A stretch of 64,000 nucleotides of DNA from a virus, in IMG/VR virus record IMGVR_UViG_3300044722_000002, positions 1 through 64,000 of that record. One strand, written 5' to 3'. Shown piece after piece: positions 17,676 to 60,849 of the stretch. How positions within the stretch are numbered: the first letter of the stretch is position 1; the number at the start of each line of letters is the position of its first letter. Below the pieces are notes generated by a model that did not search any database, had not been told where the DNA came from, and saw only the letters and a program-made list of their open reading frames with translations. Position numbers and translations under genes: made by a program.

Positions 17676-18776
17676 TCAGCCGCCGTCTAGCTCTGGCATT
17701 CTTGCGTCATACCGATCATATTCATCTGCAACCTTCGCTGCTGCTTCTATCCCGGCCCGCTGTCCTGCGCGATACATGTCTGAGCCTGTAAGGGCTGATT
17801 CAACCAAAAATCTCACAGCGGCTAAGTCTTGGGACTCAGAATCGACCGACGTACCCAACAGTCCTGCGTTAGTAAGCTTCTCCGCGATCTCGCTTGCCAT
17901 CGCTGTAGCTTGAGCAGTGTCCTGCGGTCTCCATGACGACTCGATCCATTCTTCAAACTTTATTCGCGTGTGAATTTCGAGTGCGGTGTGGTCAGGCGCA
18001 CATTCTCCCGTCTCTATCCAGTGTGTTAGATATTTAGCCGCGTCGTCGCGCATCCCTGTGAAAAGATTTGGCCCCAATGATTCGTCAAACCAGTGATGAA
18101 CAAGTTCAAGAAACCATCGCACGACTGTTTCGGGGTGGGCGCGAGATGTCATGTAATAGCCCTTCGGAGCAGCATCCAACACTTTGTATTTGGTAATAAC
18201 AACCGAGGAATGCCCTAGGTCGGCGTCCTTCCCTGAATCTTGTACTGGTTGGTTAAGTTGATGGCGGGTGTTCCAAGTTGTAACAGCCTCCGAGACGCTG
18301 CTGTAGTTTGGAAAACCCCCTTCTGCCAGCCGCTGGCAATTACAGGACGGGCAGTGAACCTGCCAGCAGTTATCAATCAGCATAATCTTACCGTGCTCAA
18401 TTACAGCCTCTTGTTCTAGCGATGGCTCTCCGCCGCAAAATGGACACGGCAATAGTTCTTGTTCTCTAATTGGCCCACGACCACCACCCCACCCGAGCGG
18501 CTGATCATAGGCGGGCGATGCTGGTGATGGCTCTTGCTCTCCACCCTGAGAGGGAACTTCTGGTTCCCACTGGCTATCATCGTAACTTTCGCCGCCAACT
18601 ATGCTCCCTAGTCGCGGACTCAACACCTGTGGGTAATCAAAGGTGTACTTGAAGCCGCGCTCCGTTATCTCAGTCACGGTCGCTGGCGGATAATAGATTG
18701 CATGGCGATTCTTAATGCGGCTACCAACGCTGAACCGCGTAGGCTGAGAGGAAGCATCTGATTTATCTGTGGTCAT
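17676..18776 (-). CDS. Composite protein with Lar-like zinc domain
   Basis: 366 residues. Residues about 105-170 match the Lar restriction-alleviation family: LLPCPFCGGEP, a VHCPSCNC pair, and EAVTTWNTR. Lar of Rac prophage modulates type I restriction. The N-terminal 100 residues (a beta segment with a Gly/Pro/Gln-rich linker) and the C-terminal 190 residues are not part of Lar, which is normally about 60-90 residues. The C-terminus is helical. Anti-restriction function is possible but inferred from the domain only. Confidence 0.6.
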   Translation of the reverse strand: MTTDKSDASSQPTRFSVGSRIKNRHAIYYPPATVTEITERGFKYTFDYPQVLSPRLGSIVGGESYDDSQWEPEVPSQGGEQEPSPASPAYDQPLGWGGGRGPIREQELLPCPFCGGEPSLEQEAVIEHGKIMLIDNCWQVHCPSCNCQRLAEGGFPNYSSVSEAVTTWNTRHQLNQPVQDSGKDADLGHSSVVITKYKVLDAAPKGYYMTSRAHPETVVRWFLELVHHWFDESLGPNLFTGMRDDAAKYLTHWIETGECAPDHTALEIHTRIKFEEWIESSWRPQDTAQATAMASEIAEKLTNAGLLGTSVDSESQDLAAVRFLVESALTGSDMYRAGQRAGIEAAAKVADEYDRYDARMPELDGG

Positions 18777-35201: not shown

Positions 35202-35505
35202 GTGAACACGTTCGCGCCGCGTCATAGCCATTTTGCTGTTTAACTATTTCGTACCCGGTGTTAAAGCATCGTTCGCAAAACCCGTGCGTGATCTGTTTAT
35301 GGCCAGAACGGTTCGACGCAGACGCGGACTCTCTAATCGCATTCAGTGCCGCGCATAGCTCGGAAGCGTCGAGTGGATAACTGGACAGCCTTGTTCGTCG
35401 AGCATGAAGATAACAATCGTTCAGCAGGATTTCAGGTACGTGGCCGTACAGGACTTCAAGCCATCCGGCAGTAGCAACTTTCAGCTCAGTGGCTGACAGT
35501 GGCAT
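35191..35505 (-). CDS. Hypothetical protein beside the initiator
   Basis: About 104 residues from an ATG at 35505; the frame is open to 35631, but that start overlaps the initiator gene by 146 bases. SATELKVATAGWLEVLYGHV and a CERCFNTG zinc-like site are visible. The position after the initiator is where helicase loaders or primase cofactors often sit, but nothing proves that here. Confidence 0.5.
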   Translation of the reverse strand: MPLSATELKVATAGWLEVLYGHVPEILLNDCYLHARRTRLSSYPLDASELCAALNAIRESASASNRSGHKQITHGFCERCFNTGYEIVKQQNGYDAARTCSHEL

Positions 35506-36391
35506 CCCAACTGGGCGTGACTTCGTGATTATTTCCGCCACCTTCGCCGCGTAGCTCTGCGATGACCTCGAAGCTCTCTCTAAGGTTTCGTTCTGACTTT
35601 GATTCAGGGTGTTCAGGGTGTCCATTTCCATTTTGCGCCCTCGCTATAAACTGTTCCACGTGTTTTACGTCCCGGCAGATAAGTTCAATGTCATCGTAAA
35701 CCGCCCCGGAGTCATTTTGCCCTTGGTGGTAAGGTGACGCCCGACAACCCGCGACCGCCAGCGTGAGATCGTCAACCGAAAACCCGTCAACAAGGCGAGC
35801 CTCAATCTTACTTAGCCGCTCCTTGCTTAATCTTGCGCTGGGGTGATTCATAACCACCTTCCACTTCTCAAACACTAAATGCGCTTTATTCTCAGAAGAA
35901 GTCTCAGTTGTAGTCTCTTGGTTAGTCTCAGTAAAGGATGCCGCCATTTTGGCGTGATCGGATGACGACAACTTGGCGCGATCCATAGCGCCAACTTGGC
36001 GTGTTCCATGCCGCCATTTTGGCGTCCTCGATGACGACAACTTGGCGTGATCCAGAACCATACGGTCAGAGAGTTTGCCTAGCTCCTCGTATTCAACTGA
36101 ATACCAGTTTTTTTGGTCTCGATCGGTGGCTGTGAATTGGTGAACGACGATGAGATTTTGATCCAGTAGGCTGCGGACTATTCTTTGCATCGTTCGGAGT
36201 GACCAAAAGGGAAATTGCTCATGCCACTCCTCATAGGTGTTGTATGTCCATCGACGCTCATCGTGTTCGTGTCTGGACTTCACTAGCCAGTAGTGGAGCT
36301 GCTGAAGGAATATTGCTTCGTTTAGCCCGATCTGTTTGGCGAGCTGGGGTAAGACCTGAAGGGGCTGTTCGTCGATAAGTAGTTTCGGCAA
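35486..36391 (-). CDS. Replication initiator protein
   Basis: 301 residues from a TTG with GGAG upstream. Residues 1-100 form a winged-helix domain (ILPQLAKQIGLNEAIFLQQLHYWL, WSLRTMQRIVRSL), typical of phage replisome organisers. A Ser/Arg-rich linker (115-150) is encoded by the iteron block. The C-terminal part (LVFEKWKVVMNHP...SKIEARLVDGFSVDDLTLAV) resembles the DnaD/DnaB-like end that contacts helicase. With iterons inside the gene, it parallels lambda O. Confidence 0.8.
   Translation of the reverse strand: MPKLLIDEQPLQVLPQLAKQIGLNEAIFLQQLHYWLVKSRHEHDERRWTYNTYEEWHEQFPFWSLRTMQRIVRSLLDQNLIVVHQFTATDRDQKNWYSVEYEELGKLSDRMVLDHAKLSSSRTPKWRHGTRQVGAMDRAKLSSSDHAKMAASFTETNQETTTETSSENKAHLVFEKWKVVMNHPSARLSKERLSKIEARLVDGFSVDDLTLAVAGCRASPYHQGQNDSGAVYDDIELICRDVKHVEQFIARAQNGNGHPEHPESKSERNLRESFEVIAELRGEGGGNNHEVTPSWDATVSH
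35941..36050 (-). repeat. Five iterons, likely replication origin
   Basis: TTGGCG cores on the plus strand at 35949, 35973, 35996, 36019 and 36042, spaced 23-24 bases (about two helical turns). Copies read ATTTTGGCGTGATC, ACTTGGCGCGATCC, ACTTGGCGTGTTCC, ATTTTGGCGTCCTC and ACTTGGCGTGATCC. They lie inside the initiator gene, as in lambda, where the O protein binds iterons in its own gene. No experimental evidence. Confidence 0.7.
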
Positions 36392-56572: not shown

Positions 56573-56840
56573 CGATGTAACCGAGTTGTTGGCCAACGGC
56601 GCACGGTTACCCGAACATCCCGCTTCGACTAACTCGTTAAAAGTAGTCTCGTTTGGCACCGTAAGAGACGATGGTGACGGGACGATCCTTAAGGGTGGAT
56701 TACATGAGAATGAGGTTCGAATCTTGATGAGCGGGCATCCGGGAGCGTTGGGCCACCTTTACCGATTTGTGATTCGAAACCAGCGAATCTACCACACTCG
56801 TTCACTGGTTACGATTGACGTTCTCTGCGAAGATGCCTGA
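56544..56840 (+). CDS. Small hypothetical protein
   Basis: 98 residues, overlapping the previous gene by 29 bases and the terminase start by 8. Beta-rich (LKVVSFGTVRDDGDGTIL, GHLYRFVIRNQRIYH). Unknown function. Confidence 0.5.
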   Translation: MSDGTTSRVDDVTELLANGARLPEHPASTNSLKVVSFGTVRDDGDGTILKGGLHENEVRILMSGHPGALGHLYRFVIRNQRIYHTRSLVTIDVLCEDA

Positions 56841-59800
56841 ACCAACCCTAGAACATGTACTTGATCTTCTCGCCAGTTCGACGCCTGAGCAGGTTGACAA
56901 AACAATGTCATGGCTCAAGGCGAACATTCCTGATACCTATAAAAGACTCAGCGCCTACCTTAAACTAAACAAAGGTATTTTTATTGAGCGGCGCGGGCCG
57001 GAGCATTGGTTAAAGACTCTTGGTGCGCAGACGTTCACCCGTCCCTTTGCTCCAATTCAACGAAGATTTTGGGAGTGGAACTGGGGAGCGTTAAATAAAG
57101 TACGAAACGGAGTCCCGCTTGATCCGAAAGAGACGGTTGGGTTTCTACCGTGGCCCAGAGAAACAGGAAAGTCGAGCCACGTGGAGTGGGCGGCAATAGC
57201 CGAGGGAGCCATACTTAAAAGCGGCTATGTTATTTACCTCTCCGCAAAACTCTCACAAGCAATAGACCACGTGGTTGCGATTCGTGATCGCATCGAGTCG
57301 GAACACGTGGCTGAGACCTACCCGTGGCTGGGAAAACCAAAACTAGGAGCGCACGGAAATAAGTTCGGCTGGGGGCAGGAGTTTTTAATGACTTCGGGCG
57401 GCTGGTCTATTCGACCAGTCGGAGCGGATGTAGCGATGCGCGGCGGGAAGTCAATCAACCTTAGACCATCTATGGTGATTTGTCATGAACGCGGCACGCG
57501 AATGCTGCATGAGAGCCAGTGGATCAAAGTAGAAGATCACCCCACGGCCAAAGAGCACCGATCTGATGGCGTTGAGGTGCAACTGCACGGACTTCCATTC
57601 AGGGAAACGGTTTCGCTGGATCATCGGTATAAGGTTATTAGCAAGAGACGAACTACGGTTAACGGAGAGAAGAATGTTTATGTTTGGACTGCGCCAGCGT
57701 GGGTGAAAGGCAGTGATCTTTCCGAAGAGTGTTACGTCGGTCTGCCTATTGATTTCTCTGTGAAACCGCTCCAGCCTGTCTTAAAAGATTTTAGTCGGAA
57801 GAAAATTGTTGGACGTGATAAAAAGGGCCGAATCACTAAATATGAGAACGTGGGTTTGGAGCGTGTGGTTATTGAGGAGTTTTTTGATCCCGATTGGTGG
57901 TGGCTAATTGGATTGTGGTGGGGAGACGGACACTTAACAAAAACTCAGGTTGGGTGGACCATCGCCACTGCAGAGCCAGAGATATTTGCCCGCGTATCGT
58001 CCATTCTTCGTCGCTGGAATAAGCCCTATTCAGTCGTACCGAAGTCTGGATGCTCTCAAATTGTTATCGCGCATACAGCTATGAGCCGATGGCTGCGAAC
58101 GTGGAAGTTAAGCAAAAAGCAAGGACATAAAGCCCCTCCCGCATGGGTGGAAAAACTTAACAGCGTCTATCAAGAGCGATTGATTCAAGGCTACGTAGCA
58201 GCGGACGGTTTTATTGACATCGCGGGGAACGGGGTTCGTATCACAAGCGTGAGTTTAGAAGGTCTGCTTGCGTTACGACGAATCCTTTTGCGATTTGGTA
58301 TCTGTTCGTCTATCCGACGGGGTGTCGGGCCAGGGCAGATAGTTATCAAAGGAAGGACTTGCCAAACCCAACAAAAATATGACCTGAGATTTAGGGGTGG
58401 AGCAAGAAGTCTTGGATACCCGTTTGATGATCAAACTCGCTATGACTTTGTTCAGTATTTTATTGAGGACGGGTGGCTATGGTCGAAAATTAGATCGCTA
58501 GCCCCCGCGCTCGATAAAGTTTTCGTGCCGATAAAAACGGAAGATCATACATATGTAACGGCATTTGGTCAGTCGCACAATTGCGACGACTACGACGAGC
58601 TGGGCGACTCTCCGCACGTGGTTGAGCATAAGGAGCACATGCTAACGCGGGCCATCCTTCCGATGGGCAACGCTAACACCCGTGTGCTCGTTCCGCAGAA
58701 CCCAATTCATCCGAATTCAGTGGTTAACCGAATGCTGACGGGCGCATCTCTTGCTTTGGCTATCCGTACTATCTTTGGGGAGATTAACGAAGAGGGCTCA
58801 CTTAGCGCGAGACCAATCCAAGCCGTTAAGGGATTAGTGTACGAAGTTCGTCAGGCCGACGAAGGCCCGTACTCGGTCATCACGCAGGGCGAGTCTAACT
58901 GGCCCGGTATCACGGTTTCTGACTGGGAAGGCACAATGAACAGGGTAAGCCCGGACGCGTTTGCCGCTGAATACCAGCACGATATGACGGTAGTAAAAGA
59001 GGAAAGAGTACTACCTGAATACGATGATCGTGTTTTACGTTTACACGTAATTACCTGGAGTCAGTTTGAGGCGAAATATAAGATACGTCGAATTCCGAGA
59101 GACTGGCCCTGCGATGTTGGGCTGGACATTGGTTACACGGTGGCCCACAAGTCAGCATGGTCGTTCATTAGTAAAGTACCGCAAGCATATGAATTGTCGG
59201 GCTCAATCTTCCGCTACCGAGGCCGCACGTTCACCGGCATTGGCATAGACGAACAGGCGGTAATCATTCGCAGTGAACTTTGGCCGGAAGAAAAGATTGA
59301 GCGAGAGTACATGAGCCATGAAAAACTAGGCGAGCGAATGGTTCTGAATTCCAAGCATGACTGGCACTTTAATCCATTTCCTGATATTGGAAAATTTGCA
59401 GGGGTGGCCCAGTGGCGACACTTTTTAATGTCCGATCATTCTCAACCGCATCCGTTTCATCCTGACAGAAAAGGGATAGACGGACGTTGGGAGCTTGGTC
59501 GTCCGGCATGGTTTGACGTGGTCGATGATCGACAGTTTATCGCCCCAGTGGACGATGCGGGCATGAAAGGGCATCGCGACGGTGCTTATAACTGGCGTAA
59601 AGTGCCGGTTAAGTTAACGGATAAAGGATTAACTATTGAGCAGCCAGCTAAGAAGGATGACGATGAATGCTTTGTGGCTGGAACTCTGATTACGACCGCG
59701 AGAGGCGAAGTCCCGATTGAAGAAATAGGCCAAAAAGATGTAGTCCTGACACGACAGGGATGGTATAGTGTTCTCGCTTGTGGCAAGACTAAATCTGAGG

Positions 59801-60849
59801 CTGAAATATGGACAATAACCCTAAGCAGTGGAAGCCAATTGAGCGGGACGAAAACACATCCGATTTGGGTTGTGGGTTACGGGTGGAAACCGTTATCGGA
59901 GATAAGGGCAGGCGAGAGGTTGTTGTCTTTAACGGAGTGCGCTTCTATCGCTACCCAGAGTCAAAGCATTGGGCGCACCGAGCCTATTTCAAGCCCCACG
60001 TACACGCCGTTCGTAAGGGAATTGGTGCGTTACACATCGAGCTTTGGAAGTCTGTTCACGGAGATATTCCAGAAGATCACGCGGTTCATCACAGGGACCA
60101 TAATCCGCTTAACAACGCCGATTCCAATTTTGAATTACTTACCCGTTCCGAACATAGCAGCCATCACGGGAATAACATGCAGCCTGAAGTTAAGGCGCGA
60201 ATGCGCGCAAATATTATCAGCCAGCAGGAATTGGCAAAGATCTGGCATCGAAGCGACGAAGGAAGGGAGTGGCACAGAAAACACGCTTACCAAAGCATTC
60301 AGCCGCCACCTAAAATTGAAATGCAATGCATGTACTTCTTTTGTCAAAAGCTTTTTCAGGGGCGTAAGGGGGTTAGTAAGTTTTGTTCGACGGTCTGTAA
60401 GCAGCGCGATTACGACGGAGTTGTTCCCACATGGCGATTATGTTTACAGTGTAATACGCCGTTTGAAGTCGGAACCAAGGATCGCGTCCACTTATACTGC
60501 GGAGGTTTTCGTTGTAAGCAATCAGAGGATAGATGAACTTTCCACTGTTTACAATCTTTCAGTAGAGCGTCATTCTGAGTATTTCGCTAACGGCGTGCTG
60601 GTTCATAATTGTGACAGCACACGCGGAATTTTAACGGGTTTTGGGCCATCTGAACAGGCGATGACGCAATCACAGAAAATACAGCAAATCATCCCCGCTG
60701 GCTATCATAAATCTGAGTTGCTTTTGAGAAACGATATCCCTCCCGACGTTGCTCACATGACCGGGGAGATGGCTGACTGGCTGGCGCGAAGGACGCTTGC
60801 TTTAAGACAACCAAAAGCAGTAGACGATTATGGTCAGATTATTTCGTAA
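56833..60849 (+). CDS. terL: Terminase large subunit with two inteins
   Basis: 1338 residues from the ATG at 56833; a TTG 18 bases earlier is in frame but less likely. Walker A PRETGKSS (108-115); the Walker B line LRPSMVI...CDDYDELGDS is interrupted by intein 1 (217-583). Nuclease domain with DVGLDIGYT (D761, D765); last acidic motif DDDE...CDSTRG is interrupted by intein 2 (946-1259). After splicing the protein is about 657 residues, normal for a terminase. Packages DNA through the portal encoded just downstream. Confidence 0.9.
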   Translation: MPEPTLEHVLDLLASSTPEQVDKTMSWLKANIPDTYKRLSAYLKLNKGIFIERRGPEHWLKTLGAQTFTRPFAPIQRRFWEWNWGALNKVRNGVPLDPKETVGFLPWPRETGKSSHVEWAAIAEGAILKSGYVIYLSAKLSQAIDHVVAIRDRIESEHVAETYPWLGKPKLGAHGNKFGWGQEFLMTSGGWSIRPVGADVAMRGGKSINLRPSMVICHERGTRMLHESQWIKVEDHPTAKEHRSDGVEVQLHGLPFRETVSLDHRYKVISKRRTTVNGEKNVYVWTAPAWVKGSDLSEECYVGLPIDFSVKPLQPVLKDFSRKKIVGRDKKGRITKYENVGLERVVIEEFFDPDWWWLIGLWWGDGHLTKTQVGWTIATAEPEIFARVSSILRRWNKPYSVVPKSGCSQIVIAHTAMSRWLRTWKLSKKQGHKAPPAWVEKLNSVYQERLIQGYVAADGFIDIAGNGVRITSVSLEGLLALRRILLRFGICSSIRRGVGPGQIVIKGRTCQTQQKYDLRFRGGARSLGYPFDDQTRYDFVQYFIEDGWLWSKIRSLAPALDKVFVPIKTEDHTYVTAFGQSHNCDDYDELGDSPHVVEHKEHMLTRAILPMGNANTRVLVPQNPIHPNSVVNRMLTGASLALAIRTIFGEINEEGSLSARPIQAVKGLVYEVRQADEGPYSVITQGESNWPGITVSDWEGTMNRVSPDAFAAEYQHDMTVVKEERVLPEYDDRVLRLHVITWSQFEAKYKIRRIPRDWPCDVGLDIGYTVAHKSAWSFISKVPQAYELSGSIFRYRGRTFTGIGIDEQAVIIRSELWPEEKIEREYMSHEKLGERMVLNSKHDWHFNPFPDIGKFAGVAQWRHFLMSDHSQPHPFHPDRKGIDGRWELGRPAWFDVVDDRQFIAPVDDAGMKGHRDGAYNWRKVPVKLTDKGLTIEQPAKKDDDECFVAGTLITTARGEVPIEEIGQKDVVLTRQGWYSVLACGKTKSEAEIWTITLSSGSQLSGTKTHPIWVVGYGWKPLSEIRAGERLLSLTECASIATQSQSIGRTEPISSPTYTPFVRELVRYTSSFGSLFTEIFQKITRFITGTIIRLTTPIPILNYLPVPNIAAITGITCSLKLRRECAQILSASRNWQRSGIEATKEGSGTENTLTKAFSRHLKLKCNACTSFVKSFFRGVRGLVSFVRRSVSSAITTELFPHGDYVYSVIRRLKSEPRIASTYTAEVFVVSNQRIDELSTVYNLSVERHSEYFANGVLVHNCDSTRGILTGFGPSEQAMTQSQKIQQIIPAGYHKSELLLRNDIPPDVAHMTGEMADWLARRTLALRQPKAVDDYGQIIS
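57481..58581 (+). other. Intein 1, in the Walker B motif, with LAGLIDADG domain
   Basis: 367 residues, TerL 217-583. First residue Cys at 57481, last residues HN with a following Cys (58582). It separates the hydrophobic Walker B strand from its acidic residues, a highly conserved target. LIGLWWGDG (from 358) and LIQGYVAADG (450-459) are LAGLIDADG motifs, so this is a homing-competent full intein. No mutation of the Cys or Asn is seen. Confidence 0.85.
59668..60609 (+). other. Intein 2, at the last nuclease motif
   Basis: 314 residues, TerL 946-1259. Starts CFVAGTLI (Cys at 59668), has block B TKTHP (His 1009) and ends YFANGVLVHN with Cys following at 60610. About 240 residues between block B and the C-terminal block are not a LAGLIDADG or HNH domain in this frame; they correspond to the region that encodes an HNH enzyme in another frame. 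All four splicing motifs appear intact. Confidence 0.85.
59808..60536 (+). CDS. HNH homing endonuclease nested out of frame in intein 2
   Basis: 242 residues, frame offset by -1 to the terminase. ATG at 59808 has GAGG about 7 bases upstream. HVHAVRKGIG...WKSVHGDIPEDHAVHHRDHNPLNNADSNFELLTRSEHSSHHGN is the HNH core (residues about 69-118). Then two zinc-binding clusters (CMYFFC...CSTVC and CLQC...CGGFRC). Complete and intact, wholly inside the intein. A second protein made from the same DNA, by internal translation initiation, is inferred. Confidence 0.8.
   Translation: MDNNPKQWKPIERDENTSDLGCGLRVETVIGDKGRREVVVFNGVRFYRYPESKHWAHRAYFKPHVHAVRKGIGALHIELWKSVHGDIPEDHAVHHRDHNPLNNADSNFELLTRSEHSSHHGNNMQPEVKARMRANIISQQELAKIWHRSDEGREWHRKHAYQSIQPPPKIEMQCMYFFCQKLFQGRKGVSKFCSTVCKQRDYDGVVPTWRLCLQCNTPFEVGTKDRVHLYCGGFRCKQSEDR

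What the first reader, a model, noticed from the sequence alone, without database searches (positions are those of the whole stretch)
56833..60849. Two inteins in one terminase, at Walker B and the last nuclease motif
Both inserts target the most conserved catalytic sites of TerL, with precise Cys...HN|Cys borders at 57481-58581 and 59668-60609. Intein 1 has a LAGLIDADG enzyme and intein 2 an HNH one, so two independent invasions using different endonuclease classes are implied. Terminase activity depends on both being spliced, which might allow conditional control of packaging.
Basis: partly seen in the sequence, partly recalled or inferred. Interest (0 to 1): 0.7.

Follow-up and report, generated by a model that had tools for sequence, protein, structure and literature searches.

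The report
Terminase intein hiding an out-of-frame endonuclease
A viral DNA-packaging gene is interrupted by two self-excising protein inserts, and the second one hides a complete DNA-cutting enzyme gene in another reading frame of the same DNA, an overlapping-gene arrangement that proves to be the usual form of this insert in the phage sequences sampled.

Summary
A TerL gene (56833-60849) carries two inteins with the borders given (57481-58581, 59668-60609). TerL relatives 64-80% identical lack them.

One point is materially wrong: the HNH endonuclease is not part of intein 2. In the TerL frame, intein 2 is a Hint splicing domain (AlphaFold pLDDT 93-98) around a ~180-residue bridge with no confident fold. 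The HNH is a separate 217-242 aa gene in another frame of the same DNA (59808 or 59883 to 60536), with its own start and stop and a confident model (pLDDT 89).

This is not a quirk. Of 137 HNH relatives inside an uninterrupted intein ORF, 131 use this same alternate frame, 6 the other, none the intein frame. The TerL frame has 0 stops across those 131 genes against 257 expected from synonymous shuffles; free-standing relatives show no avoidance. Of 80 inteins sampled without regard to HNH, 69 have the out-of-frame HNH, 9 are mini-inteins, 2 carry an antisense Vsr-like endonuclease gene, none has an in-frame HNH.

Closest precedent read: the ShiLan out-of-frame HNH insert, which lacks a splicing domain. 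A 2025 preprint on non-canonical intein architecture could not be read and may overlap. Splicing and homing remain untested.

The parts
56833..60849 (+). terL, interrupted by two inteins; 657 aa remain without them
   Evidence: Continuous ORF; PHROG 38 terminase large subunit E 3e-12; relatives L166-L171
57481..58581 (+). Intein 1, at Walker B (MVI|CDDYDEL), in-frame LAGLIDADG endonuclease, 367 aa
   Evidence: Pfam LAGLIDADG_3 E 2.5e-13; empty site in relatives; no ORF of 60 aa or more in another frame inside it
59668..60609 (+). Intein 2, at the last nuclease motif (DDDE|CDSTR), 314 aa in the TerL frame
   Evidence: Pfam Intein_splicing E 2e-11; empty site DDDE-N-DSTR in L167
59668..59928 (+). 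N-terminal half of the Hint splicing domain of intein 2 (Cys1, TKTH)
   Evidence: pLDDT 93-98; HMM match; fold match to solved inteins
59941..60489 (+). Bridge of intein 2 in the TerL frame: open, no family match, mostly no confident fold
   Evidence: pLDDT about 45 for most of residues 92-270; no stop codons
60490..60609 (+). C-terminal half of the Hint domain of intein 2 (EYFANGVLVHN|C)
   Evidence: pLDDT 95-97 over the last 40 residues; HMM match 60508-60609
59808..60536 (+). Hidden HNH endonuclease gene in another frame (offset 2 from TerL): 242 aa from ATG 59808, or 217 aa from GTG 59883, which aligns better with the starts of relatives
   Evidence: HNH_3 E 1e-11; PHROG 15471 E 2e-22; model pLDDT 89; relatives
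60030..60158 (+). HNH catalytic motif of the hidden gene (HAVHHRDHNPLNN...NFELLTRSEH)
   Evidence: Pfam HNH_3 at residues 75-117; family-invariant His, Asp and Asn residues kept
59797..59800 (+). Shine-Dalgarno-like GAGG, 7 nt before ATG 59808
   Evidence: Sequence; such 4-mers are enriched before the starts of relatives

Best explanation
Intein 2 is a protein-splicing domain that shelters a complete homing-endonuclease gene in a different reading frame. Ribosomes reading terL pass through the insert in the TerL frame and make a precursor in which the Hint domain, with a long unfolded bridge, excises itself and joins the TerL exteins. Other ribosomes start inside the intein at the HNH gene's own start codon and make a free HNH endonuclease, which cuts intein-free terL genes at the insertion site so that intein and hidden gene are copied in together. 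Because the HNH gene keeps its own stop codon it can only lie out of frame: in frame, that stop would truncate the essential terminase. Selection then removes stop codons from the TerL-frame reading of the HNH gene. Shown here by computation: the two-frame anatomy, its conservation, the frame-specific constraint, the start signals, the empty sites. Inferred: splicing, internal initiation in vivo, cleavage and homing. Intein 1 is a conventional in-frame LAGLIDADG intein.
For: HNH ORF with HNH_3 and PHROG matches and a confident model, while the TerL-frame reading of the same DNA mostly has no confident fold between two confident Hint halves that match solved inteins. 131 loci with the same offset, 6 with the other, 0 in frame. 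Host-frame stops 0 against 257 expected; free-standing 98 against 103, split 51 against 48. In the listed pairs of relatives the third HNH codon position changes most and the TerL-frame reading diverges faster, while Hint-N is constrained in the TerL frame. Own start codon, ATG in 125 of 137, SD-like 4-mers 43% against 12% in control windows. 69 of 80 inteins chosen without regard to HNH have it out of frame. Intein-free and HNH-free relatives fit a mobile element. Nearest solved relative is the homing enzyme I-HmuI (E 0.001).
Against: No splicing, expression or cleavage data. The window HNH has no close relative (best 44% identity), and one cysteine pair is spaced unusually (CMYFFC). Its start codon is ambiguous (59808 or 59883). 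HNH proteins beside terminase genes can serve packaging instead of homing.
Confidence: 0.82

Rival explanations
1. The HNH is reached by programmed ribosomal frameshifting from the TerL/Hint-N frame, giving a Hint-N-HNH fusion rather than a free enzyme.
For: One transcript carries both frames; the offset is nearly always the same.
Against: A start codon lies a median 14 nt after Hint-N in nearly all loci, with SD enrichment; an HNH-frame stop usually lies just upstream, leaving little room to shift; six loci use the other offset; free-standing relatives exist with their own starts.
Confidence: 0.06
2. The HNH serves DNA packaging beside the terminase (as HNH proteins upstream of terminase do in HK97-like phages, cited in PMC10448857 and PMC12613952) and is not a homing enzyme.
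For: Free-standing relatives lie next to terminase genes.
Against: Close TerL relatives lack the HNH within the flanks held; near-identical inteins exist with and without it; it sits inside a splicing element with empty sites in relatives.
Confidence: 0.08
3. The HNH in this window is a decaying remnant that happens to remain open, and only the splicing domain is active.
For: The window HNH is on a long branch and has an odd cysteine spacing.
Against: Family-invariant catalytic residues are kept, there is no internal stop, base composition by codon position follows the HNH frame in this region, the model is confident, and the family is under purifying selection.
Confidence: 0.1
4. The frame difference is an artefact of sequencing or assembly: two compensating indels around an in-frame HNH domain.
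For: None found.
Against: The same offset occurs in 131 loci, including isolate phage records (TJE1, Highwayman), and the HNH gene has its own stop codon and start codon.
Confidence: 0.01

Closest known systems
ShiLan domain and Pacc40 gp60 insert (Arsenault, Gosselin, Gogarten 2025, PMC11855218)
   Same: HNH gene nested out of frame in a host gene whose own frame stays open; sporadic distribution, interpreted as homing
   Different: Those inserts have no detectable splicing domain and are thought to stay in the host protein; here a complete Hint domain surrounds the hidden gene
Canonical inteins with an endonuclease domain, including TerL inteins of mycobacteriophages (Kelley et al. 2016, PMC5050341)
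   Same: Hint domain, conserved site in an essential protein, endonuclease at the usual position between the Hint halves
   Different: The endonuclease is a separate overlapping gene, not a domain of the intein; that study placed all its terminase inteins in the ATPase domain, whereas intein 2 is in the nuclease domain
Fractured genes with split inteins (Dassa et al. 2009; paper not held, known from citation and memory)
   Same: A free endonuclease gene lies between the two halves of an intein
   Different: Here the intein is continuous and the endonuclease overlaps it; relatives of the same HNH family do occur in split terL genes
Group I introns with HNH genes (I-HmuI)
   Same: A splicing element shelters a separate HNH gene; I-HmuI is the nearest solved relative (E 0.001, top hit but weak)
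   Different: Splicing is at the protein level, so the sheltering frame must stay open through the HNH gene

Membership tests
Intein (intein 2) | Hint fold with N-terminal Cys, TxxH motif and C-terminal HN before Cys/Ser/Thr | tested here: met
   Pfam, motifs, model and fold match to solved inteins
Intein (intein 2) | Insertion with an empty site in relatives | tested here: met
   L167 DDDE-N-DSTR
Intein (intein 2) | Self-splicing | not testable with these tools
   Needs expression
Canonical intein with a fused endonuclease domain | Endonuclease encoded in the intein frame | tested here: not met
   HNH is in another frame; 0 of 137 relatives in frame
HNH homing endonuclease | HNH motif with catalytic residues | tested here: met
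   HNH_3 E 1e-11; invariant residues kept
HNH homing endonuclease | Cleavage of the empty site and homing | not testable with these tools
   Only sporadic distribution and empty sites are shown
ShiLan-type out-of-frame HNH insert | HNH out of frame, host frame open | tested here: met
ShiLan-type out-of-frame HNH insert | No splicing domain (as described in PMC11855218) | tested here: not met
   A complete Hint domain flanks the HNH
Split intein / fractured gene | Intein frame interrupted, halves on separate ORFs | tested here: not met
   The window ORF is continuous; the relatives do meet it
Intein (intein 1) | LAGLIDADG endonuclease in the intein frame, C...HN|C borders, empty site in relatives | tested here: met
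   its splicing blocks had no Pfam match of their own

The most novel reading that the evidence does not exclude
Inteins of this large phage family are safe harbours for whole homing-endonuclease genes in any frame but their own: two sense frames for HNH, and the antisense strand for a Vsr/DUF559-type enzyme. Out-of-frame nesting is required because the intact gene brings its own stop codon. Loss of the hidden gene leaves mini-inteins, and closure of the bridge frame leaves split inteins, so one overlapping-gene state links free-standing, nested, mini and split forms.
Probability: 0.55. Interest if true: 0.85.

Novelty: new variant of a known kind. Interest (0 to 1): 0.74.

Why it matters
Inteins are usually described as a splicing domain with an endonuclease domain fused in frame. 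Here the endonuclease is an overlapping gene, in a family where that is the rule, and it is not annotated in the three annotated phage records examined that carry it in a continuous intein (TJE1, Highwayman, LS06). It offers a large natural set of dual-coded sequences with free-standing relatives as controls, suggests how homing genes can enter inteins without fusion, gives a testable route to split inteins, and warns that apparently endonuclease-free inteins should be checked in all six frames.

Tried and rejected
Scan of IMG/VR with the single window HNH found nothing; alignment queries were needed. Chance openness of the TerL frame: rejected. Sequencing indels: rejected. In-frame HNH in the same family: looked for, none in either sample. 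Intein 1 relatives among phage records: none. The fold search with the HNH model gave only a weak top hit, I-HmuI. My script first called L206 'no HNH' by mistake; reading its frames showed an offset-2 HNH inside the intein. Dassa 2009 and the Gosselin 2025 preprint are not held.

Full report
What was checked. The window is part of a 73-kb viral record. The gene at 56833-60849 is one open frame of 1338 codons with a TerL match (PHROG 38, E 3e-12). Intein 1 (57481-58581) carries a LAGLIDADG domain in frame; intein 2 (59668-60609) matches Pfam Intein_splicing. Six IMG/VR contigs hold TerL relatives 64-80% identical over the middle extein, and none has an intein at the sites covered: LIV-V-DDYDEL where the window has MVI[intein 1]CDDYDEL, and in L167 DDDE-N-DSTR where the window has DDDE[intein 2]CDSTR. 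The inserts are real and exactly bounded.

The HNH endonuclease is not in the intein 2 polypeptide. It is encoded in another frame of the same DNA: ORF 59808-60536 (242 aa from ATG; 217 aa from GTG 59883, which aligns better with the start of relatives such as L007). HNH_3 matches at E 1e-11. AlphaFold, run on alignments of window and IMG/VR sequences only, gives the HNH-frame protein mean pLDDT 89. Most of the same stretch read in the TerL frame has pLDDT of about 45, between two Hint halves at 93-98, which match solved inteins such as gp41-1 and Mtu RecA. G+C by codon position in this region follows the HNH frame.

Is it chance? For the window alone, back-translating the HNH protein with this phage's codon usage leaves the TerL frame open in 0.16% of trials (mean 4.8 stops). 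A stricter shuffle of the gene's own synonymous codons gives 3.7%. The family is decisive. HNH relatives were collected from GenBank phages and IMG/VR by HNH sequence, without information on frame. Of those inside a continuous intein ORF, 131 use the same relative frame, 6 the other, none the intein frame (a few are near-duplicates). Across the 131 the host frame has 0 stops where synonymous shuffles within each gene predict 257; the third frame has 2287 against 2378. The six offset-1 loci have 0 against 61 in their own host frame. Free-standing relatives (98 against 103) and split-intein ones (51 against 48) show no avoidance. Only genes inside a continuous intein are free of host-frame stops.

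Both products are under selection. In the pairs listed (54-93% HNH identity) the third HNH codon position changes most, and the TerL-frame reading of the same DNA diverges faster; in the adjacent Hint-N domain the third-position excess is in the TerL frame. Constraint switches frame at the border. The HNH has its own start: ATG in 125 of 137, a median 14 nt after Hint-N, with SD-like 4-mers before 43% of starts against 12% of control windows. Pairs share ancestry, so these are consistent indications rather than independent tests.

How general it is. A sample of 80 inteins chosen only by the C-terminal splicing block contained 68 with the out-of-frame HNH by script (one with the intein start off the contig) plus L206 by inspection, 9 mini-inteins, and 2 with an antisense endonuclease gene. 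None had an in-frame HNH. The two samples share some contigs. N-exteins of nested loci mostly match terminase families. Many insertion points fall in the last nuclease motif (D-H|C-x-D-A-L-R-Y and neighbouring codons); others look, by eye, like Walker B. Organisms by record title include Glycomyces, Janthinobacterium, Bacteroides, Parabacteroides, Nitrospiraceae, Patescibacteria and a Thermoplasmatales MAG. In a FastTree tree of 178 HNHs the offset-1 form is one group (support 97), split forms cluster, and free-standing ones are scattered. The tree is poorly resolved, so the direction of change is not established.

Related states. Mini-intein L246 matches HNH-bearing L110 at 95% and 97% nucleotide identity on the two sides and lacks 573 nt; L203 and L206 match at 89% and 91% and differ by 597 nt; both are multiples of three. 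L246 keeps a tail that overlaps the 3' end of the HNH gene, which suggests deletion. In terL of Lactobacillus phage CL2, Vibrio phage 1.245.O and others, the same HNH family lies between two halves of an intein on separate ORFs. Free-standing relatives lie beside terminase genes in PAE1, SN1, FBPa53, EauM-23, Shemara and BP10.

Mechanism. The simplest account: a free-standing HNH gene that targets terL entered a mini-intein where inteins usually hold endonuclease domains. As an intact gene with its own stop codon it is tolerated only out of frame, since in frame the stop would cut TerL short. The frame that needs fewer stops removed (about 5 per gene against 16, from free-standing relatives) is the one used in 131 of 137 cases. 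The intein gains mobility; the HNH gene gains a harmless site in an essential gene. Splicing, internal initiation and cleavage are inferred.

Comparison with the known. The ShiLan domain (PMC11855218) is an out-of-frame HNH insert with an open host frame but no splicing domain. The parts of that paper I read describe no intein with such an arrangement, but it cites a preprint on non-canonical intein architecture (doi 10.1101/2025.01.02.630785) that could not be read. Kelley et al. (PMC5050341) place all their terminase inteins in the ATPase domain. Full-text searches found no other report. I file this as a new variant of a known kind; prior description of similar inteins in actinobacteriophages is possible.

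Noticed in passing
L251:3089-3943 (-), L257:1347-2234 (-); also L277, L278, L280: Inteins (in L251 and L257 of about 395 aa and of a different family) carry a complete antisense gene with zinc-ribbon motifs and a DUF559/Vsr-like nuclease (E 7e-11 in L251); the intein frame stays open on the other strand.. Host gene not identified for all.
   Followed up: partly
L005, L012, L071, L073, L081, L083, L094, L180, L182, L187, L189, L193: terL genes in which the same HNH family lies between the halves of a split intein, the last 30-50 residues of TerL being on a separate ORF. Includes Lactobacillus phage CL2 and Vibrio phage 1.245.O.
   Followed up: partly
L246 and L260 versus L110: Mini-inteins 95-97% identical to an HNH-bearing intein but 573 nt shorter; the two aligned blocks share 17 nt at the junction, as if deleted between short repeats.
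   Followed up: partly
L037 and L157: HNH relatives with no recognised Hint halves but also no stops in the +1 frame; possibly nested in divergent inteins.
   Followed up: no
L170 and L171, TerL site 2: Intein-free relatives that already have a Cys at the +1 position (DEDS-C-DATR), the residue an intein would need there.
   Followed up: no
window 57481-58581: Intein 1 has no tblastn relative in the GenBank phage collection and its splicing blocks have no Pfam match.
   Followed up: no
window 17676-18773 (-), 35486-36388 (-): Proteins matching Lar-like restriction alleviation (E 5e-12) and a DnaD-like helicase loader (E 5e-42), on the strand opposite to terL.
   Followed up: no
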